Shown here piece after piece: positions 30,120-48,208 of a stretch of 64,000 nucleotides of DNA. How positions within the stretch are numbered: position 1 is the stretch's first letter; each line of letters starts with the position of its first letter. The notes below the pieces were generated by a model that was not told the DNA's origin, did not search any database, and worked only from the letters and a program-made list of their open reading frames with translations. Both the position numbers and the translations under genes were made by a program. The DNA is from Burkholderia mayonis (lineage in GTDB: Bacteria; Pseudomonadota; Gammaproteobacteria; Burkholderiales; Burkholderiaceae), in NCBI RefSeq assembly GCF_001523745.2, contig NZ_CP013386.1, positions 2,046,001 to 2,110,000 of the forward strand. The letters are read 5' to 3'.

Positions 30120-30258
30120 CGGACGAAAAATTCGCCAGGCGTCTGATTTTCTGGCATAATCGCGAGCTTTCGACCTTAGGCAAGTGGCTCGCGCCGGGCT
30201 TTCGCACCTCGGCACCGCGCAGCGCCGACCGGCGTCGATTCACGACGCGCCCAGCACG

Positions 30259-30280
30259 CATGTCCGGCTGTCCGGACATG
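30259..30280 (+). promoter_or_regulatory. Inverted repeat in the rpmE2 leader
   Basis: CATGTCCGG - CTGT - CCGGACATG, a perfect 9-bp stem with a four-base loop, 58 bp before the rpmE2 start. A CATAAT at about 30156-30161 is a candidate -10 upstream. It could be a ribosomal-protein leader hairpin or a protein-binding site. Confidence 0.5.
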
Positions 30281-30337
30281 ATGCGAAGCGCGATGCGCAA
30301 GCGGCGGGCTGGCTACCGCTCTTACACTGGAAAAACC

Positions 30338-30601
30338 ATGAAACAAGGCATTCACCCGGATTACCGCGAAGTCGTCTTCCAAGACATGTCGAACGGCTTC
30401 AAGTTCATCACGCGCTCGACGATCCAGACGCGCGAAACCGTCGAGCTCGACGGCAAGACCTACCCGCTCGCGAAGATCGAAGTGTCGTCGGAGTCGCACT
30501 CGTTCTACACCGGCCAGCAAAAGATCATGGATACGGCGGGCCGCGTCGAGAAGTTCAAGAACAAGTTCGGCGCACGCGCCAGCGGCAAGGCTGCGAAGTA
30601 A
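30338..30601 (+). CDS. rpmE2: 50S ribosomal protein L31 type B (zinc-independent)
   Basis: 87 residues starting [20 protein letters not shown]. It lacks the CxxC zinc ligands of type A L31, so it is the C-minus paralogue usually induced on zinc limitation. A perfect 9-bp inverted repeat sits in the leader (30259-30280). A rho-independent terminator follows. Zur regulation is known for this type in other bacteria; I see no clear AT-rich Zur box here. Confidence 0.96.
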
Positions 30602-30650
30602 GCTTCGCGCCCCGTCGGCACCGGCCTCGCGCCGGACCGGCTCCGCAAAG

Positions 30651-30676
30651 AAGGCAGCCCAGGCTGCCTTTTTTTG
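30651..30676 (+). terminator. Rho-independent terminator of rpmE2
   Basis: AAGGCAGC / GCTGCCTT stem with a four-base loop and a T7 tract. Confidence 0.9.
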
Positions 30677-30825
30677 TCCCCGCTCATCCCGCACGGTCGC
30701 CGAGCGCCGCGCGGGCCATCCGGTTCGCTGACGCGCGTCGTCCAGCGCGTCTACAATGCCGGATGCTCGAAATGGCCCGCCGCGCCCGCGTCGGGCATGT
30801 CACCCATCCTCTGCCGCCCATCTGC

Positions 30826-32574: not shown

Positions 32575-32577
32575 CCG

Positions 32578-33933: not shown

Positions 33934-34142
33934 CGGGCGGCGGGTGCCGCGCGCTTCCTGCCCTTGCGGTTTTCGATGCGCGAATTCTGCCTTCTGCATT
34001 CCGGCGCTCGGCCTCTCGCCCCTATGTCGAGCCTGCATGTCAGCGCCCACGCGCCAGTTCCCCCGAGTGGCGTATCGCCAAGTACGGCATCGTCGCGCCG
34101 CATCGCGCGTGAGCGCGGCGGCGTCGGCCGCCGCAGCGGTCG

Positions 34143-34553
34143 TCACGCATGCGCGCGCGCGTCGGCGGCATCACGTTGTTCGAACACGTCGCGTGCGGCG
34201 AAGAGCGCGTTGATCGCGGCCGGGAAGCCCGCGTACACGGCCATCTGCATGAACACCTCGACGATCTCGTCGCGCGTGCAGCCGACATTGAGCGCCGCCT
34301 CGATGTGCACCTTCAGCTGCGGCTGCGCGTGGCCCAGCGTCGCGAGCGACGCGATCGTCGCGATCTCGCGCGACCTCAGATCGAGCTGCGGCCGGCTGTA
34401 GATGTCGCCGAAACCGAACTCGACAAGCAGCCGCCCGAAGTCGGGCGCGATCGGCGCGAGCGCCGCGACCACGCGCTCGCCGACGTCGCCGTCGATTTCC
34501 TTCAGCTTGTTCCAGCCTCGCGTATAGCGGTCTTCTGCGGTGCATTGTTCCAT
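34143..34553 (-). CDS. Carboxymuconolactone decarboxylase family protein
   Basis: 136 residues, MEQCTAEDRYTRGWNKLKEIDG, with the family core HIEAALNVGCTRDEIVEVFMQMAVYAGFPAAINAL. It has one conserved Cys in the core and one at residue 4, so it lacks the AhpD CxxC redox pair. Its start lies within the 3' end of the merR gene (52-base overlap). In Bacillus the similarly regulated YraC belongs to this family and is part of the AdhR aldehyde-response regulon, which suggests a role in carbonyl or electrophile stress here. Confidence 0.9.
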   Translation of the reverse strand: MEQCTAEDRYTRGWNKLKEIDGDVGERVVAALAPIAPDFGRLLVEFGFGDIYSRPQLDLRSREIATIASLATLGHAQPQLKVHIEAALNVGCTRDEIVEVFMQMAVYAGFPAAINALFAARDVFEQRDAADARAHA

Positions 34554-34987
34554 CGTTCGTCCTTGTCCGGTTGAGGTTGATTCGCCTGTCGAATCGCGTC
34601 GCGCTCGGCCCGCTCGTAATACGCGATCTTGTCGACGATCGCGTCGAGGTTCGTCTGCAGCGTGTCGATCTGTGCGCGCACCCTGTCGCGATGCGCGGCG
34701 AGAAGCGCACGCCGCTCGCCGATCGTCGCGTCGCCCAGCGCGCGCAGCTCGGCGAACGCGTGCATCCCGGCGATCGGCATCCCGGTCGCCTTCAGGCGCA
34801 TCACGAAGCGCAGCCAATCGAGATCGGCGGGCGCGTACAGCCGATGCCCCGACTGCGTGCGCGAGATCGACCGCAGCAGGCCGGCCTGTTCGTAGTAGCG
34901 CAGCGTGTGCGTCGACACGCCGACGAGCGCGGCGACCTGGCCGATCGTCAACGCGCGCGGGGACGTTTGCTTCGATGCGTTCGACAT
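34502..34987 (-). CDS. MerR family regulator, NmlR/AdhR-like
   Basis: 161 residues. The N-terminal winged HTH (ALTIGQVAALVGVSTHTLRY, then YEQAGLL) is followed by a coiled coil with RAQIDTLQTNLDAIVDKIAYYE, a pattern typical of the NmlR/AdhR branch. There is no cysteine, although members of that branch often use a Cys to sense aldehydes. A 22-bp perfect palindrome lies just upstream. Start ATG 34987 leaves only a very short leader after the predicted -10. Confidence 0.9.
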   Translation of the reverse strand: MSNASKQTSPRALTIGQVAALVGVSTHTLRYYEQAGLLRSISRTQSGHRLYAPADLDWLRFVMRLKATGMPIAGMHAFAELRALGDATIGERRALLAAHRDRVRAQIDTLQTNLDAIVDKIAYYERAERDAIRQANQPQPDKDERWNNAPQKTAIREAGTS

Positions 34988-34997
34988 GACGTTCTCA

Positions 34998-35028
34998 AGG
35001 TTAGGACTTAGAGTGCACTCTAAGTCAA
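34998..35028 (-). promoter_or_regulatory. MerR-type promoter with perfect 22-bp palindrome
   Basis: On the minus strand TTGACT (35028-35023) and TAACCT (35003-34998) are separated by 19 bp, the long spacer typical of MerR-activated promoters. The palindrome GACTTAGAGTGCACTCTAAG TC occupies 35005-35026, mostly inside the spacer. It resembles the CTTAGAGT..ACTCTAAG type operators of AdhR-like regulators. Confidence 0.8.
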
Positions 35029-35430
35029 GCAGCGCGTGATGGCCAGCGGCGGCATAGTGCGAATCGCCTCGCGGCGACGGAGGTCGCACTGCCGGCGAGA
35101 ACGGGCGTTGACGAGTAAGCGGGCGGAGGTCCGGGCGACCCGGCAAACTGCAGCCGATATCCGGGATTTGGGACCCGCGGATCTCGGTCGGCAGGGTTCG
35201 TGATTACCGATTGCCCCCGTCCGGCCCGATTTCCGTCAAAGATGGTAAAAACCCGCCCGCATGCCCCGCCGCAGCCTTTACAGTGTGGCCGTCGATGCGC
35301 AACATTGCCCCCGCTGTCTTAAAAAGGGCACGCATTTGTCCTATGCTTGAACGCAACGCCCGGCCCGCGCCGCGCGCCGGCGTCCGTTCTGACAGCCATT
35401 CATCCGTTTCGTCACAAGGGAGCCCCCGCC
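35029..35430. other. Spacer between merR and the HHH gene
   Basis: GC-rich, no convincing gene. TTAAAA (about 35318-35323) and TATGCT (about 35342-35347) could form a plus-strand promoter for the HHH gene, whose ribosome site AAGGGA is at 35416-35421. Confidence 0.45.
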
Positions 35431-36012
35431 ATGCTGAAAAAGCTGCTGATGCTGGTCGTCGCACTGTCGCTTTCGCTGACCGCAGCGTTCGCCGCCGCGG
35501 TCGAAGTCAATACCGCCGATCAGGCGGCGCTCGAATCGGTGAAGGGCCTCGGCCCGGTGAAGTCGAAGGCGATCATCGACGAGCGCGCGAAGCACGGCCC
35601 GTTCAAGGACGCCGACGATCTCGCGAGCCGCGTGAAGGGCCTCGGCGCGAAGTCGGTCGCCAATCTCGAGGCGGCAGGCTTGACGATCGGCGGCTCGTCG
35701 ACGCCGCCGGCGGGCGCGAAGGCGAAGACCAGCACGGCGAAGCCGGCCGCGACCACGACGACCGCCGCACCGGCGCCGACGCCGGCCACGATGACGCCGT
35801 CGCCTGCCGCCACCACGCCGGCGACGGCGGCGAGCACGCCGATGGCGAAGAAGACGCGTGCGTCGAAGAAGAAGGAAAAAGCCGCGGCAGTTGCAAGCGC
35901 CGCAACCGACGCGAGCGCGCCGGCCGCCGCGTCGTCGACAAAGGCGAAGGGCTCGAAGAAGAGCAAGAAGAACAAGGCGGCGACGCCCGCGCCCGCTGCA
36001 TCGGGCGCATAA
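35431..36012 (+). CDS. Secreted ComEA-like helix-hairpin-helix protein with Lys/Ala-rich tail
   Basis: 193 residues. A signal peptide (MLKKLLMLVVALSLSLTAAFAAA) is followed by a HhH DNA-binding motif (VEVNTADQAALESVKGLGPV, then KSKAIIDERAKHG), as in ComEA, and by a low-complexity Ala/Thr/Pro and then Lys-rich tail (ASKKKEKAAAVAS; KSKKNKAATP). ComEA binds incoming DNA in the periplasm, so a DNA-binding role is likely; the basic tail adds non-specific affinity. Confidence 0.88.
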   Translation: MLKKLLMLVVALSLSLTAAFAAAVEVNTADQAALESVKGLGPVKSKAIIDERAKHGPFKDADDLASRVKGLGAKSVANLEAAGLTIGGSSTPPAGAKAKTSTAKPAATTTTAAPAPTPATMTPSPAATTPATAASTPMAKKTRASKKKEKAAAVASAATDASAPAAASSTKAKGSKKSKKNKAATPAPAASGA

Positions 36013-36092
36013 GTCGGGCGCCGCGCGCCGCGCGCGGCGTCTTCGTTCCACCGGCGCCGTTCGCGGCGCCGCCTCAACCTAGCAGGTGAATC

Positions 36093-36515
36093 ATGGGTCT
36101 ACTCGACATCGTTGGCGGTCTGATCGGCGGCCAAGGCGGCAATCAGAACGCGCTCGTCAGCGCCGCGCTGGAATTCATCAACAACCAGCCGGGCGGCCTG
36201 AACGGCCTCATCGAGAAATTCAACGCGGGCGGCGCGGGCGGAATCATCGGCTCGTGGATCGGCACCGGCGAAAACCAGCCGATCTCGTCGGAGACGCTGC
36301 AGAATGTGCTCGGCTCGGACACGGTCGGCGCGCTCGCGCAGAAGATCGGCGTCGATCCGCAGCAGGCGTCCGGCATCCTCGCGCAGGTGCTGCCGCACAT
36401 CGTCAACGGCGCGACGCCGAACGGCGAAGTGCCGGCGAACGGCCAGCTCGACACGTCGAACGTGCTCGGCACGCTGTCGCAGCTGGCGGGCCTGTTCGGC
36501 AACAAGCAGGCCTGA
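36093..36515 (+). CDS. YidB-like protein (DUF937)
   Basis: 140 residues, Gly/Gln/Ile-rich, starting MGLLDIVGGLIGGQGGNQNALVSAA. The region LSSxTLQNVLGSDTVGALAQKIGV and a C-terminal VLGTLSQLAGLFGN are typical of DUF937/YidB. Function is unknown. It is the last gene before the genomic island. Confidence 0.88.
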   Translation: MGLLDIVGGLIGGQGGNQNALVSAALEFINNQPGGLNGLIEKFNAGGAGGIIGSWIGTGENQPISSETLQNVLGSDTVGALAQKIGVDPQQASGILAQVLPHIVNGATPNGEVPANGQLDTSNVLGTLSQLAGLFGNKQA

Positions 36516-36601
36516 GCGGCAGCGCACGGCATCGCGTGCGGCGCCGTCGGCGCCCCGCGCGATGCCCCCGCCACGGCGGCCGCAGAAACGCGCCGCCGGT
36601 A

Positions 36602-37243
36602 ATCGGGATAGGGGCGGCCAGTGACCTAGCCGATCCCCTCCCACACCACCCGGCATGCGGGTCCGCACCGGGCGGTTCGAGTAGTTGAGGTCAGGTGAGG
36701 CGAGGCCTGCCCAGGCGATCAAAGTAGGCAATCGTCAGGACGTGATGCAGCCCGGTCATGCTGTTGTGCCACGAGCGACGGCTGAGGGCCGCCACCGATT
36801 GGGCCACGCTTGGCTTGGCCCCAAGCTTGAGCAGCTCCCGGTATATCGTCTTGCCGCGCCGCCAATGCTTCAGATGGAGCGCGCGCATCCGCCGGCGCAT
36901 CCACTCGTCCAGCTGTTGCCAGCGGCGATAGGTCTGCGCCAATTGGAAGTACGCTTTCCAGCCCAGCATGTAGCTGCGCAGCCGCTCGATCACTTCGCTT
37001 ATGCTGCGCCCGCCGGATCGGCCGGTGAGCTGCCTGATCCTTTGCTTGAACGTCTCCAACGCCTTGTCTGACACGATGCGTTTAATCTCGCCTTTCCGAG
37101 TTTCCCATGGGGCGTACCCCAGAAACTTGCGACCCAAGACGCTTGCCACCGCACTCTTCGATTCGTTGATCTTCAGGTGCAGCTTGTCATAACAGCGCTT
37201 GAGTCGTGCCATCACCCGCTCGCCAGCCTTCCGGCTGCGCACG
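36602..37243 (-). mobile_element. Group II intron fragment (3' end with truncated maturase)
   Basis: The minus strand ends with an intron domain V (about 36640-36680: GAACCGCCCGGTGCGGACC and GGGTGGTG pairing) and domain VI. Upstream lies the maturase C-terminus (frame 36691 to about 37243): KAGERVMARLKRCYDKLHL, the X/thumb domain, ending HNSMTGLHHVLTIAYFDRLG. The reverse transcriptase domains and 5' ribozyme part are gone: homology stops at about 37243, where a zinc-finger phage protein begins on the other strand. Confidence 0.85.
36691..37243 (-). pseudogene. Group II intron reverse transcriptase/maturase, C-terminal fragment
   Basis: About 184 residues of an LtrA-type protein remain, from HVRSRKAGERV (end of the RT palm/thumb junction) to the stop at 36691. 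RT motifs including YADD are missing, so it cannot support splicing or retrohoming alone. The open frame extends to 37443 only because of neighbouring DNA. Confidence 0.85.
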
Positions 37244-37534
37244 TGGCCGTGGACCTTCCTCTGCCGCACGTGCCGCGCGTACGTCAGGCTGCATCCGTTC
37301 ACCCACATTCCGCTCGGCACGCTCGCCGACGCGCCGACCCGCGAGGCACGGAAGCGCGCGAAGGCTGAATTCAACCCGATCTGGCAGTCCGGCGCGATGA
37401 CGCGCATCGCCGCGTACGTCTGGCTGGCCCAGCGGCTCGGCATCGAGAACCACGAGGAATGTCACATCGATCGGTTCGACATCGAAACTTGCGACCGCGT
37501 GGTCGCCGCAATCCGCGAGAAAAAACACCAATGA
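37243..37534 (+). pseudogene. Phage zinc-finger protein (DUF3268-like), 5'-truncated
   Basis: The reading frame runs WTFLCRTCRAYVRLHPFTHI and then PLGTLADAPTREARKRA, with a CxxC pair and a C-terminal ECHIDRFDIETCDRVVAAI. This matches the DUF3268 family seen in phages. The N-terminus with the first zinc ligands is lost at the intron junction. The stop is 37532-37534 and overlaps the next start (ATGA). Confidence 0.75.
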
Positions 37535-37596
37535 CCGATACCCAAGATCCGCTCTGGCGCGCGCTCGCGCGCCTTGAGCACGCCGAGCTAGTCGGC

Positions 37597-39067
37597 CCTG
37601 AACAATTCGTTTTGTCGCGCAGATGAAGCTACGCCGCCGACGGCGCAGCGGCTCGGAAGCTGAGCAAAGCGACGAGAATCAGGGCGTAAAAAAGCCGCAG
37701 GTTGCGCAGGATCATCCGCAGGTTGTGGCCAGCGCCGCACAGCACCGCATGAATCGCATCGCCCAACGAACCCTTGAGCCAATTTCGATCGAGCTTGCCG
37801 TCGGCCTTCATGTGCCCGATGGCCGGTTCGATTGCGCTGCGACGCCGGATCATTGCTCGCAGGCCGCGTGTGATACCGCGTCGCAAACCTGGGTGATAGA
37901 CCTTCACACCATCGACGGCGACGCCCTTGTAGCCGCGGTCGACGACGGCGATCTCCGGCTGCACATCGCTCAGGATCGCCGCTTGTTCCAACGCTTCGGC
38001 CAACGTGTGCCCGTCGTATGGATTGCCCGGCATTGAACGAGCTCCGACTACCAGACCTTCCTTGTGCGTCGTGGTGATCGACACCTTCACGCCAAATTCG
38101 TACGGCTTGCGCGCTTTGCCTTTCGCCAGGCACTCGACTTCCGGCGCGTGCAGCGCATACAGCTTGTTTTTGTCCTTCTGCTTCTGCGTGAGAATCCGCT
38201 TCGTGCGGCTGATCAAGTCTTCCAACTCCGCGCGACTTTGCTGAACAACGCCTTCCAGTTGCCGCTCCACGTCACGCATCACGCGCCCCACTCGTGAACG
38301 CAAAGTGCGCAGCGCCTTCTTCATCCGCTTGTACTGCTTCGCATGCGCATAGCGCCCGATCTGGCCCGCCAGACGCGGCGCTTCGCGGTTGTAGTTCTGC
38401 CGCAGCTTCAGCCCGTGCTGGGCGGCGGCCTTCACCAGATGTTCCCGGCAACGTTCGAGCAGGCGCGAATCGGTGGGATGCGCAATCGCCTTTTCCATCA
38501 CCGTCGTATCGACAATCACCCGCTTCAGGCTCGTCGTCTTGATGACCTTTGCGCGTTTGGCCGCTTCGATCGTCTCAGCCAACAGTTCTTCAACGCCGGC
38601 TTCGCCCAGGCGCTTACGCCAGCGCGTCAGGCTCGACGGATCGATCGGCGGTTTCGTCTGCAAGTACGTCTCGCCGGTGAACACTTGCCAGTACGGGTTC
38701 TCCAGCCATTGCCAGACGACCTCTTCATCCGACAGGTCGAACGCGTGCTGCAAGTACAGCAGCCCTGCGATCAAACGCGGCGACGTTGCCGGTCGGCCAC
38801 GAGACGATGCGAAACTCGCACTCATCGTCGTGCTCAACCGAGCCCAGTCGATCAGATCGGCCAGGCGAATCAACGGATGCTTCAGATTGATCTGCTCGCG
38901 CAGCGGTTGGCGGAAGAAATCTCCCTCTGTCACCGGCAACTTCGGACCCATCCACACCTCGTCAGGATTTGCAGGATTCACGCGTCAATATGCCTGCTTC
39001 CTGCAAATCCAACAACACCGTTTCGGCCTCACCGCCTTTCCGTATAAGCCGTCCAGGATTGTTCAGG
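37597..39067 (-). mobile_element. IS element, IS5-superfamily, about 1.47 kb
   Basis: The ends are inverted: CCTGAACAAT at 37597-37606 and its complement ATTGTTCAGG at 39058-39067. It carries one transposase gene on the minus strand. Target duplication is not evident. The sequence is intact as far as can be read. Confidence 0.8.
37629..38981 (-). CDS. IS5-superfamily DDE transposase
   Basis: 450 residues with an InsH-like N-terminal domain (GRPATSPRLIAGLLYLQHAF), the central coiled segment and a DDE core: first D in VIVDTTVMEKAI, second D in AVVDRGYKG and the E in RRSAIEPAIGHMK. GTG 38981 or ATG 38951 (MGPKLPVTEG) may be the start. No stop or frameshift, so it is probably active. Confidence 0.9.
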   Translation of the reverse strand: MNPANPDEVWMGPKLPVTEGDFFRQPLREQINLKHPLIRLADLIDWARLSTTMSASFASSRGRPATSPRLIAGLLYLQHAFDLSDEEVVWQWLENPYWQVFTGETYLQTKPPIDPSSLTRWRKRLGEAGVEELLAETIEAAKRAKVIKTTSLKRVIVDTTVMEKAIAHPTDSRLLERCREHLVKAAAQHGLKLRQNYNREAPRLAGQIGRYAHAKQYKRMKKALRTLRSRVGRVMRDVERQLEGVVQQSRAELEDLISRTKRILTQKQKDKNKLYALHAPEVECLAKGKARKPYEFGVKVSITTTHKEGLVVGARSMPGNPYDGHTLAEALEQAAILSDVQPEIAVVDRGYKGVAVDGVKVYHPGLRRGITRGLRAMIRRRSAIEPAIGHMKADGKLDRNWLKGSLGDAIHAVLCGAGHNLRMILRNLRLFYALILVALLSFRAAAPSAA

Positions 39068-39215
39068 TTCGACGAGCTACTGGAAGACGACCGCAACCAG
39101 CTGCGGCCCACGTTCGCCGCGTTGCACGGCAGTCACGCGATGCGCATCCCCGACACGATCGTCGCGCGCATCCGTCATCTGGACGCGACGCTGCCGAAGA
39201 CGACGGAGACCTGAC

Positions 39216-39623
39216 ATGCTGCTCGACAAGATAGGCGGCGCTGACGCCGCGTTCCGCGCTCAGATCGAAGGCATCTACTGGGACGGCAAGATCGGCTGCG
39301 AGCCGCATCCGAAATACGGATACGGATGCGACACGCTACCGAACGGCTGGACCGAGATCACGTGGGAAGTGTTCGCGAAGTCGAAGTTCTTCTGCACGCC
39401 AATCGCGACTGGCTGGCTGCGCACGACGATCGGCAATGCGCGGCTGTTCTTCATGCATGACCGGGTCGGCTTCGCGCTGCTCGGCGACTACCGCGTCGGC
39501 ACGGTACAGGTATTCCGGTTTGGTTGCGAACACGAAATGAAGAGCGAAACCGTTGGCAACTGCCTGCACCGCTACACGTGCACGAAGTGCGGCTTCAGCG
39601 AAGTCGTCGATTCGTCCGACTGA
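39216..39623 (+). CDS. Hypothetical phage-type protein with Cys/His-rich C-terminus
   Basis: 135 residues, MLLDKIGGADAAFRAQIEGI. The last 30 residues contain CEHEMKSETVGNCLHRYTCT KCGF, which looks like a zinc ribbon. It starts two bases after the split gene's stop, so it belonged to the same prophage operon. No function known to me. Confidence 0.65.
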   Translation: MLLDKIGGADAAFRAQIEGIYWDGKIGCEPHPKYGYGCDTLPNGWTEITWEVFAKSKFFCTPIATGWLRTTIGNARLFFMHDRVGFALLGDYRVGTVQVFRFGCEHEMKSETVGNCLHRYTCTKCGFSEVVDSSD

Positions 39624-40009
39624 CGCCAATCAAGCCAAGGAAGTGCATACCGCGACGCGCGATCGCGCCGCGGTGATCTACATCGCGCCTTCACACCTCA
39701 ATGGCGGGTGCTCGGGTGACGGGTGGGCGCCGTCACATCGCGCACCTTGGCCTGCAGCCGCCGCACAGCGCTTTCATGCTACCCCGCTGCCATATGCGAG
39801 CCGAGTACCCGCCATTGAGGTTTATCGGAAGCGCCACTATCAGGTCATTTGTAAGAGCACTCCCCAGATATAATTCGGCGCATAGAAAATTAGTGATCCG
39901 ACAAGCTGCGTGTCTCGACCGCATTGCAGTGTTGCATTTCACGATCTGCCACGAAATTCAGATTGAAGGCGGCAAGCGCAAGCCTGCCGCACAATAAAAA
40001 ATTAATCGC
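39624..40009. other. Spacer with structured 125-bp element, GC drop
   Basis: The left part is GC-rich; from about 39830 the DNA becomes AT-rich and stays so to 40840. It contains the inverted-repeat element at 39696-39820 and no credible gene. Confidence 0.6.
39696..39820. repeat. 20-bp inverted repeats bounding a 125-bp element
   Basis: CCTCAATGGCGGGTGCTCGG at 39696-39715 and its near-perfect complement at 39801-39820 (one mismatch). An inner hairpin GTGACGG..CCGTCAC lies at about 39716-39736. It sits just before the base-composition boundary. Confidence 0.7.
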
Positions 40010-40483
40010 TCATCCCTTGCGGGTCACCGATTCATTTTTTAATTGCATTGGCACGATCGTACTATAATACGGCCAAATATAAGGACCACCTGCACCTTGA
40101 TTCAAGTCCTGATGGATTGCGGTATAACCTTCAATCGCAGGCGGAGAAGAACTATCAATCACAAGCAGCATGATTGCGGTGATAGGCTTTTTGCCCGCCT
40201 CTCCGTTCTTCCATGTCATGTAGATGTATTTCCCGCCCGCACCCGCATTCAGATCTTGCGGGCTCCAATTCCAACCCGACGGTGGATTGGATTGAGCTTG
40301 GTCGTACGCAACGAAATTCAGTGACGTGACCGGATTGCTATCACCGCATTGATAACCGAGATAGATATATTGACCGCCCACGCCGGTGTTTGTGTCAACA
40401 GAAATGAAATCCCATGGCGGCTGGTACTGTGGTCCCGGAGTGCTTCCTGCTTGAGTCGTGAGAGCATTAATCGGACTTGTCAT
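40010..40483 (-). CDS. MABP-like beta-prism protein
   Basis: 157 residues with three repeats of a W-x-D-x-N-x-G-x-G-G-x-Y-I-Y pattern (DTNTGVGGQYIYLGY, DLNAGAGGKYIYMTW, DLNQGAGGPYIWPYY), spaced about 50 residues. This is the signature of the MABP beta-prism fold known in MVB12 and some pore-forming proteins, where it binds membranes. No signal peptide is visible. Base composition is far lower in GC than the neighbours, and the gene stands alone. AGAGGGG precedes the ATG at 40483. Confidence 0.7.
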   Translation of the reverse strand: MTSPINALTTQAGSTPGPQYQPPWDFISVDTNTGVGGQYIYLGYQCGDSNPVTSLNFVAYDQAQSNPPSGWNWSPQDLNAGAGGKYIYMTWKNGEAGKKPITAIMLLVIDSSSPPAIEGYTAIHQDLNQGAGGPYIWPYYSTIVPMQLKNESVTRKG

Positions 40484-40839
40484 TTTTCAACCCCTCTCTA
40501 TGTCTAAGAGACAAATCCAGTATATTAAAAACCTTCGAATACGCAATCGGAAATTTTCCATACCCATCATCATATCGAGATTTATTTCGCCTTCGTCAAT
40601 TATCCTTTAATTTAATTATTATTTAAATCACCCCCATTTATAAGTACGCACCACCTTACAATGACTTTCGAGTGCTTTTGCCCCTCATGTTCTCGTAGTG
40701 GATTGCGAATTTGTCATCAAACATATACATCGTTGCAGTGATATGCATCTTCATCGTCAAGTGATCTCTCTTTAGCTCAAAGCGCACCTTCACGCGCGTA
40801 GGTGAATCGCTATGCATAGCGTGCCCGGCCGCTATCAAA
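40484..40839. other. AT-rich spacer upstream of the beta-prism gene
   Basis: Strongly AT-rich (for example 40560-40640), it presumably holds the promoter of the minus-strand beta-prism gene. A minus-strand frame of 53 codons (40656-40817, MHSDSPTRVKVRFELKRDHL) is possible but unsupported. Confidence 0.5.
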
Positions 40840-41512
40840 ATGCCAATCACCTGGATCGAATGGGACGGCTTCGAAGAGGACTCGCGTTCGCGTTGTCACA
40901 TCCGGATCGTCGACTTCGAAACCGCAAGCCGCAACGGCGAACCGTTCTCGCGCCTCAATGAGGCGCTCGGCATCCTCCCGAATCCGGTCATGCGCACCTG
41001 CACTGCGAATCTGAAGGTAAAGGCCGGTCGGGCGTTCATGCAGTCACGGGGATACGGCGAATGGCAAAACGTGATGGGCATTCGTGCAGACGAACCACGG
41101 CGCGTCACTCATCTTACATCACCTGGCCGAGACAACAGCGGCGGGGAGCCGAATCTTCCACTCGCACGCGCCAACGTCCGCAAGGCTGACGTTCTCGCCT
41201 TCTGGCGTGCTCAGCCGTTCGACCTCGCGCTCGATCCGGAAGGCGACTTCGGGAATTGCGACGGATGCTTCCTGAAAGCGCCGCACAAGATCGTGCGCGT
41301 TCGTTACACGGCCCGAGCTGGCTACCTGGTGGATCAGCGAAGAATCACGCCCGTCAGGCGCCACATTTCGAAACGACCGCCCACGCTATTCCGAACTGCT
41401 GCGCGAGGCCGAGTTCTACGCGAAGCAAATCCCGCTTGCATTTCCCGAGCACGAAGAGGACGACGCCCTCATCGACTGCATGTGCGGCGACGGACCCACA
41501 GAGGACACCACC
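40840..41512 (+). pseudogene. Phage PAPS-reductase-like protein, truncated and frameshifted
   Basis: The frame from 40840 reads ITWIEWDGFEE and later MGIRADEPRRV and KADVLAFWRAQPFDLAL, DGNCD-like NCDGCFLKAPHKIVRV: the core of phage phosphoadenosine-phosphosulfate reductase family proteins. The N-terminal P-loop (SGGRTS) is absent. After KIVRV the homology shifts frame at about 41300 and continues as TRPELATWWISEESR and EAEFYAKQIPLAFPEHEEDD. So one end is deleted and a one-base shift has occurred. Confidence 0.8.
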
Positions 41513-42223
41513 ATGACCCAATCTAATAGCCGCGCTGATGCGCCCGTTTCACAACGGTATTCGTGGGCCACGACAGGCATGAAACGAGATACTGAAGGCT
41601 CGTTTGTGCTCGCGTCGGATGACGGCGCGAGAAACAGCCGCGCTGATGCGCTGACGGACGACCAGCGGCAAGCGCTCGGCGAAGCAATTTCCGAGTACTT
41701 CGGCAAGCTGGATTCCGATGAGGGAGTTCGCGCGCCGGAGGGCCGCATCCTTCGCACCTTCGACTACTGCGAATCACGGAACATCGACGACCTGATCGAC
41801 CGCGCAATCGTGCCGGCCCTCGCTGCATCCCCTGTCGAGCAGCCCGCAGCAGCGCCAACAGTCATTGCCGAACTGGCGAGCATGACGCGCATGTTCCATG
41901 CAGCCTGCCACGATCTCGGGCTCATCAACGAAGCACTCGGCCTCGATCCGGACGACGGCGGTGCGGCGCCGATCCTCGACGCCATCGCCGAACTGAAGGG
42001 CCGCGCCACCTCTGCCAATGAGACAGGTGCGGAAAGGTCTGACGACCTGAATGAACGCGCGCACCTTGCCGCCGGTCAGTGGGCGAACGCGAACACACCG
42101 ATCTCCGAAGCACTCGCCTATCGCGATGGCTACATCGCCGGTGCAAGCTCCCCCGCTATCAGTTCCTCGACGCGCGCGCGAAGGCCGGCGCGCCGATCGG
42201 CGCGAACAAGGACATGGCGCTGA
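41513..42223 (+). CDS. Hypothetical prophage protein, 3' end altered
   Basis: 236 residues from ATG 41513 (MTQSNSRADAPVSQRYSWA). It has the segment LNERAHLAAGQWANANTP and ends in an arginine-rich tail read out of frame from integrase DNA, so its natural C-terminus is lost at about 42150. It continues in frame from the PAPS-reductase-like remnant. Burkholderia phages carry similar proteins, function unknown. Confidence 0.55.
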   Translation: MTQSNSRADAPVSQRYSWATTGMKRDTEGSFVLASDDGARNSRADALTDDQRQALGEAISEYFGKLDSDEGVRAPEGRILRTFDYCESRNIDDLIDRAIVPALAASPVEQPAAAPTVIAELASMTRMFHAACHDLGLINEALGLDPDDGGAAPILDAIAELKGRATSANETGAERSDDLNERAHLAAGQWANANTPISEALAYRDGYIAGASSPAISSSTRARRPARRSARTRTWR

Positions 42224-42972
42224 TGTCGACGATGTGCAATTACTGGATCCGCTGGGGGCTCATCAAAGCGAATCCGTTCGTCGGCATGATGCAGAACAAG
42301 GCCGAGAAGGACGTTCGCGCAATCGAGCGGCACCAGGTGTTGCGCTTCTACGTCTGGTCACTGCGGCAGGATCAGGCGTATCGCACGATGGGCGTCGCCG
42401 CGATGTTCTGCTACCTCACCGGCTTCCGCGCTGCCGAGGTTCGTCCGTACCATATGGGCGGCTTGACCGACGAAGGTGTGAAGGTGATCGCCGCAAAGCG
42501 GAAGAAAGGCGAGGCGCAGACGGTAAAGCTGCGCCACTGGTCGCCGCGGTTGCGCGCCGTCGTCGAGCGGGCAAAGCGCGATCGCCAGACGGAAAGCTTG
42601 TTCCTGTTTCCGAACCGGAAAGGCCAGATGTACTCGAAGAGCGGCTGGGCGTCAGTGTGGCAGGACGCGATGTACGCATTCATCGGCGCACGCGACCCGG
42701 AGATTGCGAAGGAGCAGGAGGTGAAGAAGATGCGCGAGGCCGCGCAGCGCATCGCGAACCGTATCAACCGGCCAGTCAAGGGCGGAATGGAAACGATGTT
42801 GACGAAGCACCCCGATTACTTTTCGCTGCAGGACATTCGCCCGGCCGCCATCACGACGAAGCTCACGAATCGCGATGCCGATGCATACGATTTCGCGGCG
42901 CACTCGAACCCGAGCGCGACGCATCGACACTACGATAGGCGGAAGGTAAAAACCGCCAGCGCCACCGAATAA
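42150..42972 (+). pseudogene. Tyrosine-family phage integrase, N-terminally truncated
   Basis: About 273 residues from LPRYQFLDARAKAGAPIGAN. The catalytic Arg I is in YLTGFRAAEVRPY, the second Arg in LQDIRPAAITTKL, and the Tyr nucleophile in HSNPSATHRHYDRRKV; the second motif lacks its usual leading His (the text is LQDIR). The arm-binding N-terminus is missing. The open frame starts before 42150 but the homology does not, indicating a deletion that fused it to the preceding gene in another frame. Confidence 0.8.
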
Positions 42973-42999
42973 GGCACGGCCCCCGCGTAAAGGTGAATC

Positions 43000-43731
43000 C
43001 TACGCGAGTGCCTCAATATCTGCGTTCTGAGCGAACGGAACGAAGTCATTCGGCCACGCAGCATCCAACGAACAAAGAAGGCGCATCGTGAGCGGGGCAC
43101 GTAAATTTACCTGCTTCACATTGATTTTCACACTCGCAGGGTCCTTGGCTAGAAGCCTGCAAATGTCGCTCGTATAGTACTTAGGGCAATATCCGACGAG
43201 ATACGACGGATCATCTGTCCGCAAACATAGTGCGAAGCGATCGTGTTCGTTCTGCAAGTCATGCATAACGTACAGTCGGGCACCGGGTACAAGCTTGTCG
43301 GCCGCTTCGATGTTAGGTTCAGCGAAGTGCCTCATACCGCGAGCAAAAAAATCGATCTTCAGTCGACCATCTTCGCTCTTGTGAGGAAGTGGAAAAAGCT
43401 CGATCCGATCCGTGCCACGGAGGCCACCCGTGACGGCGAGGATACGTAGTGGATCATCGACCGAAGTACTCGGTAAACCGGTCCACTGGAAGTAACTAGA
43501 AAACTCCGGACGCGAGCGGGTAAGCAGTCGGTTAGAAAACAGCGGGAACAGTTGTTCGGAGTGGTAGATGGCGGACAAATCATCCATCCGCCCGAACGGT
43601 CGAAAGCCCTCTGCTCGCTGAGCACCCTTCGTATACACGAAACGGTACCCACTCTCGTCACGGTCGACGCGGGCTACCGGAATCCATTCCCGTGAGGATG
43701 CTTGTTGCCACGCAACGAATAGTGTTTCCAT
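43000..43731 (-). CDS. HIRAN-domain protein with HipA N-domain-like start
   Basis: 243 residues. The first 90 or so (WIPVARVDRDESGYRFVYTK, SEQLFPLFSNRLLTRSRPEF) resemble the N-terminal subdomain of HipA; the middle is unassigned; residues about 140-205 (GARLYVMHDLQNEHDRFALC and SYLVGYCPKYYTS) match a HIRAN domain, known for binding DNA ends and damaged DNA in SWI/SNF2 helicases. ATG 43731 overlaps the kinase stop (TGATG), so it is the second gene of a two-gene cassette. Confidence 0.75.
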   Translation of the reverse strand: METLFVAWQQASSREWIPVARVDRDESGYRFVYTKGAQRAEGFRPFGRMDDLSAIYHSEQLFPLFSNRLLTRSRPEFSSYFQWTGLPSTSVDDPLRILAVTGGLRGTDRIELFPLPHKSEDGRLKIDFFARGMRHFAEPNIEAADKLVPGARLYVMHDLQNEHDRFALCLRTDDPSYLVGYCPKYYTSDICRLLAKDPASVKINVKQVNLRAPLTMRLLCSLDAAWPNDFVPFAQNADIEALA

Positions 43732-44144
43732 CACTGTTTGCCAGGTTCGAGCGCAAGCAAGCGCTCTTGGTTCAACATCAAAAACTCTACCAAGAACTTA
43801 CGACGAACGGGCGACAGTATCTCGTCGGGAAACGTTGCAACAATATCCTGGACTTGAGCGGCACCAACAGCACCGAGCCGATTCAGCCAAGCTCGTGCCG
43901 CATGAGGCCACAACTTACAAAGAAATGAAAACGCTTCAATCGTCAGCAGTGACTTGACGCCACCGGCTCCGCTGTGTGGATACAGTCCCGACCTTGCTTT
44001 CCCCACAAACGTGCTGATGTGGCAGCCCATGTCTTTCGTAGTCAGCATGTTGTCGCACTTAGCCTCGGTCAAATTGCGCGCGAAGCTAGACCCATGATCG
44101 AAGCTCGGCGCGAGATACAGGCTCGCACTCGCAAGAGGATCTAA

Positions 44145-45058
44145 GAGACGGTTTCAAAAAGGCCCGGTGGGGCTGTTAACTTTCGCGGCGAGCTGTTAAC
44201 CTCAGGCATCGGAACAACCGAGACCGAGGAGATGGCCAAGCCGATCATCGACGACGAACTGTGGATATTGATCGAGCCGTTATTGCCGCCACCCAAGCCG
44301 CGGCGCGAGAAGAACCCAGGCCGCCTGCCTGTTTCGAATCGCGCCGCGCTGACCGGCATCCTGTTCGTTCTCAAGACGGGACTGCGCTGGCGCGACCTGC
44401 CCGCCGAGATGGGCTGCGGCTCGGGCGTGACTTGCTGGCGACGGCTACGCGATTGGCAGGCTGCGGGCGTATGGGATCGCCTGCACGAATTGCTGCTCGC
44501 GAAGCTGCGAGCAGCAGACCAAATCGATTTCTCGCGAGCCGCAGTCGATTCCTCATCGATTCGCGCCGTTGGGGCGGGCCAAAAACTGGGCCAAACCCCA
44601 CCGATCGCGCGCGACCCGGTTCCAAGCACCACATCGTCACCGACGCCAATGGCACGCCGCTGGCGGCGATCCTGACCGGCGCGAACGTTCACGATGTCAC
44701 GCAGCTGCTGCCGCTGATCGATGCGATTCCGCCAATTCGTGGATTGCGCGGCCACCCACTGCAGAGACCGCGCGTGGTCTACGCCGATCGCGGTTACGAC
44801 TCTGAGCGGCATCGACGAGCGTTGCGCGATCGCGGTATCGAGCCGGTTATCGCCAAGCGCCGCACCGAACATGGCAGCGGCCTTGGAAAATATCGCTGGG
44901 TCGTTGAACGCACGCATGCCTGGCTGCATCACTTCCGTCGTCTCCGCATTCGTTTCGAGCGCCGTGCAGACATTCACGGCGCGTTCCTCAAACTCGGTTG
45001 CTGCCTGATCTGCTGGAATACCCTTCGGCGGGCCGACCAGTCTTTATGAAACCGTCTC
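44145..45058 (+). mobile_element. IS5-family (IS427-type) insertion sequence, 914 bp
   Basis: Terminal inverted repeats GAGACGGTTTCA at 44145-44156 and the complement at 45047-45058. A TAA target duplication flanks it (44142-44144 and 45059-45061), as expected for the IS427 group. It carries two overlapping transposase frames read on the plus strand. Confidence 0.92.
44232..45049 (+). CDS. IS427-type transposase made by -1 frameshift (orfAB)
   Basis: The first frame runs from MAKPIIDDELWILIEPLLPP to about QK; the second frame continues TGPNPTDRARPGSKHHIVTD and VVYADRGYDS to RFERRADIHGAFLKLG. The switch is at AAAAA 44581-44585, a slippery A run where a -1 shift joins them. DDE residues: D in AAVDSS, D in VYADRGYD and E in WVVERTHAW. 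The first frame alone ends at 44675. Confidence 0.88.
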
Positions 45059-45680
45059 TAAAACAACCCCCCAATTCTGATCATGCCGATCTTGGTTTCC
45101 GATCCACGTATCGAGCATGAGATAGCCAACCACGACGTCCGCTGCGGTCGACACCCCATCAAACGGCTCGAAGTCCTTCGGAGGCACCACAAGGCCGTCC
45201 TCGGTCGCTCGTTTGAAAAATGCCGCGAAGAGCGTGACCGTATGAGCTCTAGATCGATAATTTTTTGCGTCCGCAAACTCCGCGTACTGACGGCTCTTCG
45301 AGAAGATCTCGTTTCCGTGGATCAGCCGGCCGCCCTTCGGCACAAAGTTCGGACAAACAACGCCCGTTTGGTCGCCGCATCTGGCGAGTTCGTAGTAAGC
45401 ATGCGGGATACCCAGTGCCGCTGCAAGCTCGCACGCAAGCTTCTCGGCCCAATTCTCACCGGTGTTCGCGCGACCAATTTTGAATAGGCTTCGACCCAAC
45501 TGCGCGTCGGCGTACCAGAATTTTTCTTTTGTACCGAGCTGCTCTAGCAGGTCTGCGGAACCGACTGGAACCTCAATGATGGGAAACACTGTGCCCCCGT
45601 AGAGTCGCTCCGTGGACAACCACACTGGAAGCGATATTCCGAAATTCGCATTTCCGTTCCGAAATTCACATCGCGGAAAG

Positions 45681-45708
45681 CAAAACAGGCACCTAAGTGC
45701 CTGTTTTG
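45681..45708 (-). terminator. Terminator of tRNA-His
   Basis: CAAAACAGGCAC, four-base loop, GTGCCTGTTTTG: a 12-bp stem directly downstream of the tRNA on the minus strand, followed by CTTT. Confidence 0.8.
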
Positions 45709-45719
45709 TTTGGGAATTT

Positions 45720-45796
45720 TGGGGTGGCTGATGGGACTCGAACCCACGACGACAGGAATCACAATCCTGGACTCTACCAACTGAGCTACAGCCACC
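45720..45796 (-). tRNA. tRNA-His (GUG)
   Basis: The minus strand folds as a tRNA: acceptor GTGGCTG/CAGCCAC, D-arm AGCTCAGTTGGTAGAG, anticodon loop ATTGTGATT (GUG), T-arm GGGTTCGAGTCCC. The extra G-1 unique to tRNA-His is encoded at 45796, with C73, and CCA is encoded at 45722-45720. Islands often use this gene as an integration site. Confidence 0.95.
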
Positions 45797-45851
45797 ACTC
45801 ATTTTTTCTCCGTTTGATTCGCCGTAGCGGGCTCATCAACGAAGAAGCGAA

Positions 45852-45879
45852 ATTATACAAAGGCTGTTTAACTTTGCAA
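45852..45879 (-). promoter_or_regulatory. Promoter of tRNA-His
   Basis: TTGCAA (45879-45874) and TATAAT (45857-45852) with a 16-bp spacer. It overlaps the stop codon of dusA (45868), so the tRNA is read from inside the end of that gene. Confidence 0.75.
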
Positions 45880-46887
45880 AGCCTTTTTTTCCAAAAATTC
45901 TTCCGGGCTCGTCAGGTAAGTGCGCGCCTCATCGAAGATCGACAGATCGCCGCGCGCGAGACGCTTGTTATCCGACAACACGCGGCGCCAGCCGCGCGCG
46001 CCCGCGACGCCGCGATACAGGCCGAGCGCATGCCGGACGATCGCGCCGAGATATGTGCCGCGCGCGAGTTCGGTCGCACAGTATTCGACGAGTTGCACCT
46101 CCACTGCCTCACGCGTCGGCGCCAGCGTGGTCGCGCCGTAGAAGCGCGCGTCGATGTCCGCGAGCACGTACGGGTTGTGATAGGCCTCGCGGCCAAGCAT
46201 CACGCCGTCGACGTGCCGCAGGTGCTGCTCGACTTCGTCGAGCGTCGTGACGCCGCCGTTGACGACGATCTCGAGCTGAGGAAAGTCCTGCTTCAGCCGA
46301 TACGCATAGTCGTACTTGAGCGGCGGGATCTCGCGATTCTCTTTCGGCGACAAGCCCTTCAGGATCGCGTTGCGCGCATGCACGATGAACACGTCGCAGC
46401 CGGCCGCGGCGACCGTGCCGACGAAGTCGCGCACGAATGCGTAGTCCTCGGCCGCGTCCACGCCGATCCGGTGCTTGACCGTCACCGGAATCGACACCGC
46501 GTCGCGCATCGCCTTCACGCAATCGGCGACGAGTTGCGGCTCGTTCATCAGGCACGCGCCGAACGCGCCGCGCTGCACGCGCTCGGACGGACAGCCGCAA
46601 TTCAGATTGATTTCGTCGTAGCCCCAGCGCTCGCCGAGCTTCGCGGAATGCGCGAGATCCGCGGGCTCGCTGCCGCCGAGTTGCAGCGCGACGGGCGCTT
46701 CGTCGGGCGTAAACGCCAGATGGCGCGCGACGTCGCCGTGGATCAGCGCGCCCGTCGTCACCATCTCCGTGTAGAGCCACGTGTGGCGCGAGATCGTCCG
46801 ATGAAACAAACGGCAGTGGCGATCGGTCCAGTCCATCATCGGGGCGACGGACACTCGGCGTGGACTGGACGAAGACGAGGCAGACAT
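45868..46887 (-). CDS. dusA: tRNA-dihydrouridine(20/20a) synthase DusA
   Basis: FMN enzyme that reduces U20/U20a of tRNA. 339 residues with the flavin-binding VAPMMDWTDRHCR, the catalytic-Cys motif NLNCGCPSERVQRGAFGACLM and HARNAILKGLSPKENREIPP typical of DusA. ATG 46887 (MSASSSSSPRRVSVAP) is the start. It precedes tRNA-His by 71 bp. Confidence 0.95.
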   Translation of the reverse strand: MSASSSSSPRRVSVAPMMDWTDRHCRLFHRTISRHTWLYTEMVTTGALIHGDVARHLAFTPDEAPVALQLGGSEPADLAHSAKLGERWGYDEINLNCGCPSERVQRGAFGACLMNEPQLVADCVKAMRDAVSIPVTVKHRIGVDAAEDYAFVRDFVGTVAAAGCDVFIVHARNAILKGLSPKENREIPPLKYDYAYRLKQDFPQLEIVVNGGVTTLDEVEQHLRHVDGVMLGREAYHNPYVLADIDARFYGATTLAPTREAVEVQLVEYCATELARGTYLGAIVRHALGLYRGVAGARGWRRVLSDNKRLARGDLSIFDEARTYLTSPEEFLEKKALQS

Positions 46888-47329
46888 AGGCGGTACGGTA
46901 AAGCGCGGCGGCGCGTGGACAACCGCGCATTTTACCGCAATGCGGCCGGTAGGCTGGCGCGAGACGCGCGGCGCGCCGTTCGCGCATGCCCAATCCCAAA
47001 CGCGAAAGCCCCGACCGCATGACGCAACCGGGGCTTTCTTTTGCATCAGATCCTTTGGCACGAGGAGAAGATGCGTTACCAGTATATTCGACGCGCGCCA
47101 CGCGGTACGCCGATTCTTTGTGTCTATTTGTATCGTATTTAAGCGTTCTCGCGAAAACCGATCCAATTGCATGGATCGATGCGAATACCACCATCAAAGG
47201 TACGTCGACAGCCCTGCGACATCGGCGATGCACCTCCTCGAACCCGATGCCGCACCCAATCGATTCGCGCCTCGCTCCCGCACGATCCGGGCGTGGGTAG
47301 CCGGCGCGACCGAGCACGGAAAAAGTCCG
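46888..47329. other. Spacer upstream of dusA (442 bp)
   Basis: Contains a hairpin AAAGCCCCG..CGGGGCTTT near 47003-47037 followed by CTTTTG, which looks like a plus-strand terminator, and a CGATCCA..TGGATCG repeat at 47159-47178. No gene recognised; a small RNA ending at the hairpin is possible. Confidence 0.5.
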
Positions 47330-47584
47330 TCAAACGACCCCCGCCCCCAGCAGTTCCCGATCGACCGTCGACCGCGCGACGGCGAGCGTCTGCTCGATCA
47401 CCCTGCGCTCGCTGAGCAGCAGCCCGTCGATATGCACGAGCCGCCAGTCGATCACGACCGCGCCGCCCTGCAGCACCCGGTAATGGGCCTTCTCGCCCGC
47501 CCAGACCTGCTCGGTCTTTACTTCGATGTCGTAGCCCTTGTAAGACTCGCCGAAGTCGCCGATGTCATTGCCTTTCGGTTCCAT
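47330..47584 (-). CDS. Hypothetical small protein
   Basis: 84 residues from ATG 47584 (MEPKGNDIGDFGESYKGYDI), ending VDRELLGAGVV. Charged, no membrane segment or motif that I recognise. An upstream extension to 47668 is less likely because the next gene ends there. Confidence 0.6.
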   Translation of the reverse strand: MEPKGNDIGDFGESYKGYDIEVKTEQVWAGEKAHYRVLQGGAVVIDWRLVHIDGLLLSERRVIEQTLAVARSTVDRELLGAGVV

Positions 47585-47664
47585 TTTGCCGCCTCCCCGA
47601 TCCGGACGGACCGTGCGCCGGAGCATACCCGGGCAAACCCTGCGCCCGGCGTCCGCCGTCTCCG

Positions 47665-47862
47665 TCAATCGTACGCTTCAGATAGGTAAGCCTTGCCGTC
47701 GTCGGTGATGTCGACCCGGTCGGGGCCGCTCAGATAAACGAAGCCGTCGTTCAGAAGCTCCTCGAGCGGCAGTCGGAAACCCGCCGGCAACGGCCGGCCG
47801 GCGCCGAACTGGTCGATCCATTTCAGCGCTTCGATCGCTTCGGGACTCAGGATAGGAAACAT
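47665..47862 (-). CDS. Hypothetical small protein
   Basis: 65 residues from ATG 47862 (MFPILSPEAIEALKWIDQFG), ending GKAYLSEAYD. The text LEELLNDGFVYLSGPDRVDI looks like a winged-helix fragment of a small regulator but I cannot place it. It lies 130 bp after the Mop gene on the same strand. Confidence 0.6.
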   Translation of the reverse strand: MFPILSPEAIEALKWIDQFGAGRPLPAGFRLPLEELLNDGFVYLSGPDRVDITDDGKAYLSEAYD

Positions 47863-47992
47863 GGCCCGCCTCCGCCGTCGGTTTGATTGCATCCTAGCAC
47901 TTTCACAAGTGCTGGGAAGAACGGCGAAGCCGGTGCCCGGCCGGCGCGAGAGACCGCCCCTCGCCGGCGACACGTTCAACGCAACCGCCCGC

Positions 47993-48208
47993 TCACAGGC
48001 GCGCGATCGACACTTCCGTCGACTTGACGAGCGCCACCACCTCGGCGCCGACCTTCAGCTCCAGTTCGTCGATCGAGCGCGTCGTGATGACCGACGTGAC
48101 GATGCCGAACGGCGTGTCGACGTCGACCTCGGACACGACGGGCCCGCGGATGATCTCTTTCACCTTGCCTCGAAATTGATTGCGTACGTTGATTGCCGTG
48201 ATGCTCAT
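47993..48208 (-). CDS. Molybdenum-pterin-binding protein (Mop/TOBE), SsuF-like
   Basis: 71 residues made of one Mop domain: MSITAINVRNQFRGKVKEII and STEVSIARL are typical of small molybdate-binding molbindins. In Pseudomonas putida ssuF, a protein of this type, closes the sulfonate operon, and here too it follows ssuB. The role in sulfonate use is not understood. Confidence 0.9.
   Translation of the reverse strand: MSITAINVRNQFRGKVKEIIRGPVVSEVDVDTPFGIVTSVITTRSIDELELKVGAEVVALVKSTEVSIARL

What the first reader, a model, noticed from the sequence alone, without database searches (positions are those of the whole stretch)
43000..45589. Two-gene cassette pairing a HipA-like kinase with a HIRAN protein, kinase now split by an IS
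Seen: the kinase has the nucleotide-binding and catalytic-loop motifs of the HipA family, and its stop overlaps the start of a protein that begins like the HipA N-subdomain and carries a HIRAN domain. Known: HipA toxins act with HipB; HIRAN binds DNA ends. Inference: this looks like a split HipA (N-domain moved to a DNA-sensing partner) that could be a defence or toxin-antitoxin system; it lies next to a phage integrase and tRNA. I do not know a described system with this exact pair.
Basis: partly seen in the sequence, partly recalled or inferred. Interest (0 to 1): 0.72.

Follow-up and report, generated by a model that had tools for sequence, protein, structure and literature searches.

The report
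A hipIN toxin-antitoxin pair, kinase IS-broken
Two neighbouring bacterial genes, a HipA-like kinase and a partner with a DNA-end-binding type (HIRAN) domain, form a pair that was described and named in 2021 as a predicted toxin-antitoxin or phage-defence system; here a jumping gene has cut the kinase in two, and comparison with other genomes shows the kinase being lost while the partner is kept, as expected if the kinase is the toxin and the partner its antidote.

Summary
Window 45589-43731(-) carries both pieces of a HipA-like kinase, cut by an IS5-family element (44145-45058, TAA on both sides); its stop overlaps the start of a 244-aa protein whose model folds as a HipS/HipA-N domain plus a HIRAN domain.

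What I add. (1) Adjacency: 68 of 68 kinase-seeded loci in viral contigs have HipN next. (2) Asymmetric decay: in 291 Nostocales genomes, 41 of 41 intact kinases have an intact HipN beside them, but 35 of 76 intact HipN have a broken or missing kinase, as for toxin and antitoxin. Orphan HipN shows purifying selection in one clade. (3) Mobile cargo: 18 of 53 distinct viral modules lie in the P2-phage gpA-gpQ slot; 4 of 4 matching phage records are tailless Vibrio phages with the pair beside the integrase; in this window the pair fills a gap between an integrase stop and a tRNA-His flank that is closed in three relatives. Kinase target and trigger are untested. A decayed new member of a known kind.

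The parts
45047..45589 (-). HipI-like kinase, N-terminal piece (GTG start 45589); its own codons end at the IS (about 45059), the frame then stops inside the IS at 45044-45046. Holds GTKEKFW, the conserved Lys and the catalytic loop NQDRHDQNW
   Evidence: PDLC04344 1.9e-67, profile 5-173/305; key columns invariant in 52 of 52 aligned relatives; motif names are my reading
43731..44144 (-). HipI-like kinase, C-terminal piece; holds SFDHGSS (taken as the Mg-binding motif); stop TGA 43733-43731
   Evidence: PDLC04344 1.1e-34, profile 178-301/305
43000..43734 (-). HipN: HipS/HipA-N-subdomain-like domain (residues 2-117) plus HIRAN domain (about 121-240), 244 aa, intact
   Evidence: (PDC-M03B 8.7e-90)
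44145..45058 (+). IS5-family insertion sequence with transposase frames 44232-44675 and 44261-45049, inserted in the kinase gene; TAA at 44142-44144 and 45059-45061
   Evidence: (IS5 model 104.8 bits, cut-off 110)
42079..42972 (+). tyrosine integrase, C-terminal part, convergent with HipN; probably a remnant
   Evidence: Phage_integrase 1.1e-4, below cut-off; phrog_1 7e-17, profile 211-386/611
45720..45795 (-). tRNA-His, integration site of islands in this genus
42973..45635 (.). cargo module: all between the integrase stop and the tRNA-His-proximal sequence ATTCCGAAA; this gap is closed in three relatives with a similar integrase
   Evidence: L290, L295, L305

Best explanation
A hipIN module carried as cargo of a tRNA-His genomic island, now dead as a two-gene system because an IS split the kinase. 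In intact relatives the short HipA-fold kinase (HipI) is the toxin: it would phosphorylate an essential host protein (for HipA and HipT an aminoacyl-tRNA synthetase; target of HipI unknown) and stop growth. HipN holds it inactive by docking its HipS-like domain on the kinase, as HipS does with HipT. The HIRAN domain of HipN most likely senses DNA ends or single strands made by an infecting phage and releases the kinase, giving abortive infection. Shown here: domain folds, adjacency, gene overlap, asymmetric kinase loss, location in phage accessory slots. Inferred: neutralisation, DNA sensing, target, defence. In this genome only HipN is left intact, as a stand-alone antidote or a decaying remnant.
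For: Folds: HipN = HipS-like + HIRAN; the intact Trinickia kinase matches CtkA, HipA and HipT. Catalytic columns invariant in 52 of 52. Pairing: 68 of 68 kinase-seeded viral loci have HipN directly downstream (many near-identical prophages); of 60 HipN-seeded genome loci with intact HipN and enough flank, 38 have an intact kinase upstream; of 6 plasmid loci opened (of 8 found), 5 have a one-frame kinase and 1 a remnant. Polarity, same 291 genomes searched with both queries: 41 of 41 intact kinases have an intact HipN, 35 of 76 intact HipN lack an intact kinase, 0 of 7 partial or broken HipN have an intact kinase. Setting: P2 gpA-gpQ slot in 18 of 53 distinct viral modules, reported as an antiviral hotspot in PMC9122126 (passages); hsdR-hsdS-kinase-HipN-hsdM row on a Rhodococcus plasmid. 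Sister pair HipA-like kinase + DUF3037: deleting the kinase ends defence, deleting DUF3037 is toxic (PMC12548924, passages). HipS inhibits HipT at the active site (PMC10627512 abstract and passages; PMC9325769 passages).
Against: No experiment on any hipIN turned up in my searches. Pfam HipA_C is below its cut-off even for the intact kinase (27.7 against 30.5 bits). 12 of 76 intact HipN have no kinase trace, so some HipN may work alone. The 35-to-0 count is not corrected for shared ancestry: the 35 fall into 23 clusters at 80% and 10 at 70% HipN identity; two of the 35 (G967, G1001) are mildly cut kinases that could still work. The kinase query was built from kinases that all have a HipN neighbour. 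The HipS residue Trp65 was not traced in HipN; HIRAN DNA-contact residues were only partly compared.
Confidence: 0.72

Rival explanations
1. hipIN is a plain addiction (maintenance) module of mobile elements; the HIRAN domain only binds DNA for autoregulation or tethering, with no phage sensing.
For: It rides on islands, plasmids and prophages; HipB antitoxins autoregulate transcription (PMC8262856). The strict need of the kinase for HipN fits addiction as well as defence.
Against: HIRAN is a DNA-end domain, not a sequence-specific HTH (PMC8262856). The P2 slot and the RM gene row are antiviral settings.
Confidence: 0.22
2. HipN has its own cellular or defensive function and the kinase is the accessory partner; kinase loss is then neutral and no evidence for toxicity.
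For: 12 of 76 intact HipN have no detectable kinase trace; orphan HipN in one clade with the same upstream neighbour has dN/dS 0.14-0.24.
Against: Intact kinases without HipN were not seen (0 of 41 in Nostocales; 0 of 68 loci in viral contigs), which neutral loss of either gene would give.
Confidence: 0.2
3. About this copy only (compatible with the best explanation for the family): in this window both genes are decaying, and the HipN frame is intact only because the IS insertion is recent.
For: Three IS copies are identical; the integrase is a partial match; G000 shows no second tRNA-His 3' end copy while at least 17 genus genomes do.
Against: Elsewhere HipN persists after kinase loss.
Confidence: 0.45

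Closest known systems
hipIN (Gerdes, Baerentsen, Brodersen 2021, PMC8262856)
   Same: Short kinase without N-subdomain (311 aa in the intact relative; the paper gives 279-321 aa for the four short clade XI families), downstream partner with HipS-like plus HIRAN domains
   Different: Kinase split by an IS here; clade XI phylogeny not retested
PADLOC candidate PDC-M03A / PDC-M03B
   Same: Both proteins match: 8.7e-90 (HipN), 1.9e-67 and 1.1e-34 (kinase pieces)
   Different: Nothing beyond the IS; the library gives no mechanism
hipBST (HipT kinase, HipS antitoxin)
   Different: No HipB; partner lies downstream and carries a HIRAN domain
HipA-like kinase + DUF3037 (PDC-M66 / DS-6)
   Same: Two-gene HipA-like kinase and neutralising partner, shown to defend against a phage (PMC12548924 passages)
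   Different: Partner has DUF3037, not HipS-HIRAN
HipL (single-chain kinase-HipS-HIRAN, PMC8262856)
   Same: Same three domains in the same order
   Different: One chain instead of two genes
CtkA (H. pylori kinase)
   Same: Closest solved structure of the kinase (profile 1.2e-17; Foldseek 1.3e-13)
   Different: No HipN partner in the solved entries listed; role differs

Membership tests
hipIN | Kinase gene followed directly by its partner gene | tested here: met
   Stop/start overlap at 43731-43734; intact relatives
hipIN | Partner = HipS-like domain + C-terminal HIRAN | tested here: met
   Pfam HIRAN above cut-off; fold matches for both domains
hipIN | Short kinase (279-321 aa), no N-subdomain | tested here: met
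   311 aa in L002; the two window pieces, kept as separate rows, align to it over its whole length
hipIN | Conserved Hip kinase motifs | tested here: met
   K, DRH, N/W and DH columns invariant in 52 of 52 and present in the window pieces; that they are the paper's four motifs is my reading
hipIN | Kinase falls in clade XI, HipI subclade, of the Hip tree | not tested
   Reference sequences of the tree were not fetched
hipIN | Working two-gene module in this genome | tested here: not met
   Kinase interrupted by an IS; no second HipN in the genome. This lowers 'working hipIN', not 'descends from hipIN'
PDC-M03 | PADLOC model hits for A and B, adjacent | tested here: met
   (kinase as two pieces)
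Toxin-antitoxin system | Kinase toxic alone, partner neutralises | not testable with these tools
   Indirect: asymmetric loss
HIRAN DNA-end binding | HLTF DNA-contact residues kept | tested here: inconclusive
   N162, A168, G181, P184 kept in 68-71 and D165 in 60 of 71 HipN; contact residues were not mapped one by one
hipBST | HipB gene in the operon, HipS as separate small protein | tested here: not met
   Only 130 bases lie between the kinase start and tRNA-His; partner has a HIRAN domain
Phage defence system | Protects against phage | not testable with these tools
   Setting only

The most novel reading that the evidence does not exclude
Stand-alone HipN is a kept antidote: after a cell loses the HipI toxin, HipN stays under selection because it disarms hipIN modules brought in by P2-like, tailless or other phages and islands (anti-addiction or anti-abortive-infection immunity), or because its HIRAN domain has gained a job of its own. 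The IS-cut kinase with an intact HipN in this window would be a young case of that state.
Probability: 0.22. Interest if true: 0.6.

Novelty: new member of a known kind. Interest (0 to 1): 0.38.

Why it matters
hipIN was a prediction in 2021, and I found no test of it. The matched count of intact and broken genes gives a comparative test of which gene is toxin and which antitoxin, and the P2-slot and tailless-phage settings say where to look for a phenotype. If HipN does release the kinase on DNA ends, it would link a DNA-repair type sensor directly to a growth-arrest kinase.

Tried and rejected
Undescribed system: rejected. Chance HIRAN match: rejected. hipBST or hipBA membership: rejected, no HipB. 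Attachment-site repeat at the far side of the island: none seen in window 30000-46200 (only the 20 largest of at least 60 repeat families are shown) and no second tRNA-His 3' end in G000 among its 2 matches, so the far border stays unknown. The protein-database search for HipN relatives could not be made. NCBIfam gave nothing for the kinase or HipN at a meaningful score. Reverse-order loci: 5 of 23 were given to Pfam (10 proteins) and the same 5 to PADLOC (8 proteins). Phylum scan: besides the window only 3 weak HipN matches (E 6.9e-6 to 2.4e-4) in 398 genomes; in L007 the weak HipN follows a kinase-profile match, in L008 only short partial matches, in L009 none.

Rows set aside before counts: of 68 genome loci, 4 at contig edges and 4 with broken HipN, leaving 60. 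Of 87 Nostocales HipN loci, 4 at edges (G960, G760, G975, G824:C248), 6 partial HipN (edges not checked) and 1 HipN broken together with its kinase (G884:C6), leaving 76. G895, a kinase in two pieces with a HipN stub at a contig end, counts in neither; G978 and G961, kinase fragments without HipN, are not intact kinases. HipN pieces under 150 bits were not counted. The search tool scored at most 7 (kinase) or 9 (HipN) first-look candidates per genome, so some matches may be missing.

Full report
WHAT IS THERE. On the minus strand a GTG-started frame (45589) encodes the N-terminal part of a HipA-like kinase and runs into an IS5-family insertion sequence at about 45059, stopping inside it (45044-45046); the kinase frame resumes on the other side (44144) and ends with TGA at 43733-43731, overlapping the GTG/ATG start of a 244-aa protein that ends at 43000. 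The IS spans 44145-45058, has ends GAGACGGTTTC, is flanked by TAA on both sides and exists in three identical copies in the genome, this one included, plus one at 89% and two partial matches. Its transposase matches DUF4096 and, just under the cut-off, an IS5-family model.

KNOWN ALREADY. Gerdes et al. 2021 (PMC8262856; [quoted passage not shown] PADLOC-DB 2.0.0 has the pair as PDC-M03A/B. PMC11706625 (passages) reports HipA plus HIRAN genes next to about a third of diDNase genes, says they were predicted to have phage-defence functions, and cites HipI. My searches for later experimental work (only CC0, CC BY and CC BY-SA papers of PMC are held) listed none on hipIN; other journals are not covered.

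PAIRING. A HipN-seeded scan of one genome per species returned 68 loci. Frames were scored with HMMs from the session alignments: 64 have an intact HipN, 60 of them with at least 1.1 kb upstream; 38 of 60 have an intact kinase directly upstream, 13 a broken one, 9 none. Of the 4 loci with broken HipN, 0 have an intact kinase. A kinase-seeded scan of viral contigs returned 68 loci, 68 with HipN directly downstream and 2 (L138, L147) with a split kinase. The 70 viral loci hold 53 distinct kinase-HipN sequences. The kinase query was built from kinases with a HipN neighbour, so more distant kinases without HipN could have been missed. On plasmids 8 of 72,556 records match HipN; of 6 opened, 5 have a one-frame kinase match upstream and 1 (Oscillatoria, L013) only its last 37 profile positions, behind a transposase-like ORF.

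ASYMMETRIC LOSS. To remove the bias of the seed I searched the same 291 Nostocales genomes with the kinase alignment and the HipN alignment, tallied them and read the frames of the doubtful and kinase-less loci. Main-type HipN (150 bits or more) occurs at 87 loci. Intact, in one frame and not at a contig edge: 76. Of these 41 have an intact kinase just upstream, 20 a kinase broken by stops, frameshifts or truncation (two of them, G967 and G1001, only mildly), 15 none or a small remnant (3 of the 15). All 41 intact main-type kinases have an intact HipN. Seven loci have a partial or broken HipN; none has an intact kinase. So 35 loci lost the kinase and kept HipN, 0 lost HipN and kept the kinase. 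By length alone the kinase should take about 56% of single losses (312 against 244 profile positions). The 35 are not independent: their HipN fall into 23 clusters at 80% identity and 10 at 70%. The species scan overlaps this set and is no independent test. Outside it, the window (IS) and, in the same family, L006 (kinase in two frames) and L005 (no kinase match) show the same direction, while L018 and L019 are intact. This is what a toxin and its antitoxin would give.

ORPHAN HipN. Three genomes with no detectable kinase and the same upstream neighbour (G929, G939, G830; neighbour read from the ORF listing) give pairwise HipN dN/dS of 0.14, 0.15 and 0.24 at dS 0.16-0.26, like kinase-bearing pairs (0.16-0.27 in 15 of 16 pairs; the 16th, at dS 0.02, gives 0.55). 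Other orphan pairs give 0.27, 0.43, 0.68, 0.68 and one with no synonymous change; the pair G856-G842:C62 (0.17) has small kinase remnants. The 0.43 and 0.68 values, at low dS, weaken the case. HipN is kept by selection without its kinase in at least one clade, not evidently in all.

SETTING. The tRNA-His flank was found in 65 of 65 genus genomes, and at least 17 carry a second 47-52-nt copy of the tRNA 3' end on the same contig 3.4 to 60 kb away (my count from the list, which is capped; three more have it on another contig), so it is an island site. HipN is in 2 of 65 genus genomes, the window's included, and in 3 others besides the window's among 299 of the family. In the window, L018 and Trinickia L019 the pair lies beside tRNA-His. 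In L290, L295 and L305 a similar integrase (97, 75 and 88% DNA identity) ends, by alignment, directly before ATTCCGAAA, the sequence that in the window stands at 45636; the hipIN module thus fills the gap between integrase stop and tRNA-proximal sequence. In phage records 4 of 50,697 match; all 4 are Vinavirales records from Vibrio with the kinase, HipN and an integrase in a row. Of 53 distinct viral modules, 20 have a P2 gpA-type gene (phrog_91) within 5 kb upstream, 21 a gpQ-type portal gene (phrog_68) within 3 kb downstream and 18 both, i.e. the cos-proximal slot that PMC9122126 (passages) describes as a hotspot of anti-phage genes; that paper's text does not name HipA or HIRAN. Of 60 downstream neighbours given to Pfam (of 89 listed), 20 are portal proteins and 9 integrases. 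Plasmid examples include hsdR-hsdS-kinase-HipN-hsdM in Rhodococcus (hsdR and hsdM by the annotation 'DEAD/DEAH box helicase' and 'class I SAM-dependent DNA methyltransferase') and a Nostoc plasmid next to DUF499/DUF1156 genes.

HOW IT LIKELY WORKS. In HipBST the HipS protein, a free-standing HipA N-subdomain, blocks HipT: through Trp65 at the Gly-rich loop in E. coli (PMC10627512, abstract and passages) and through a loop-to-helix change that stops ATP binding in Legionella (PMC9325769, passages). HipN has the same domain and so probably the same act; whether it has a residue like Trp65 I did not test. The HIRAN domain makes release on DNA ends plausible but unshown. A related pair, HipA-like kinase plus DUF3037, protects against a phage with the kinase as toxin (PMC12548924, passages), which raises the prior for defence here.

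VERDICT. The finding is real, correctly located and well read, but the pair is a described one and the copy in the window is decayed. What is of use is the comparative evidence for toxin/antitoxin polarity and the phage-slot setting.

Noticed in passing
L222, L224, L225, L226, L227 (Nostocales genomes G824, G807, G790, G1000, G866): A reverse-order variant: a diverged HipN-like gene lies upstream of the kinase. 23 loci in 11 of 291 genomes (one contig has a tandem array, so its order is ambiguous). The 8 proteins tested match PDC-M03A/B, but the 5 HipN-like ones give no Pfam HIRAN. This order is not among the organisations in the section of PMC8262856 that I read.
   Followed up: partly
L010, L011, L314, L315: hipIN in 4 tailless (Vinavirales) phage records from Vibrio cyclitrophicus, beside the integrase; the two read whole also have a PM2-like capsid gene.
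   Followed up: partly
L016 3076-4675: hipIN pair inside a type I restriction-modification gene row on a Rhodococcus plasmid.
   Followed up: no
window 45657-48195 against L285, L286, L288, L302: In these relatives the tRNA-His/dusA block lies the other way round to the following genes, which come directly after the tRNA.
   Followed up: no
window 37629-38981: A second, different transposase-like gene (450 aa, minus strand) about 3 kb from the integrase frame; family not checked.
   Followed up: no
L012 2075-6856: Nostoc plasmid hipIN next to DUF499 and DUF1156 genes, a defence-like setting (the defence link is recalled).
   Followed up: no
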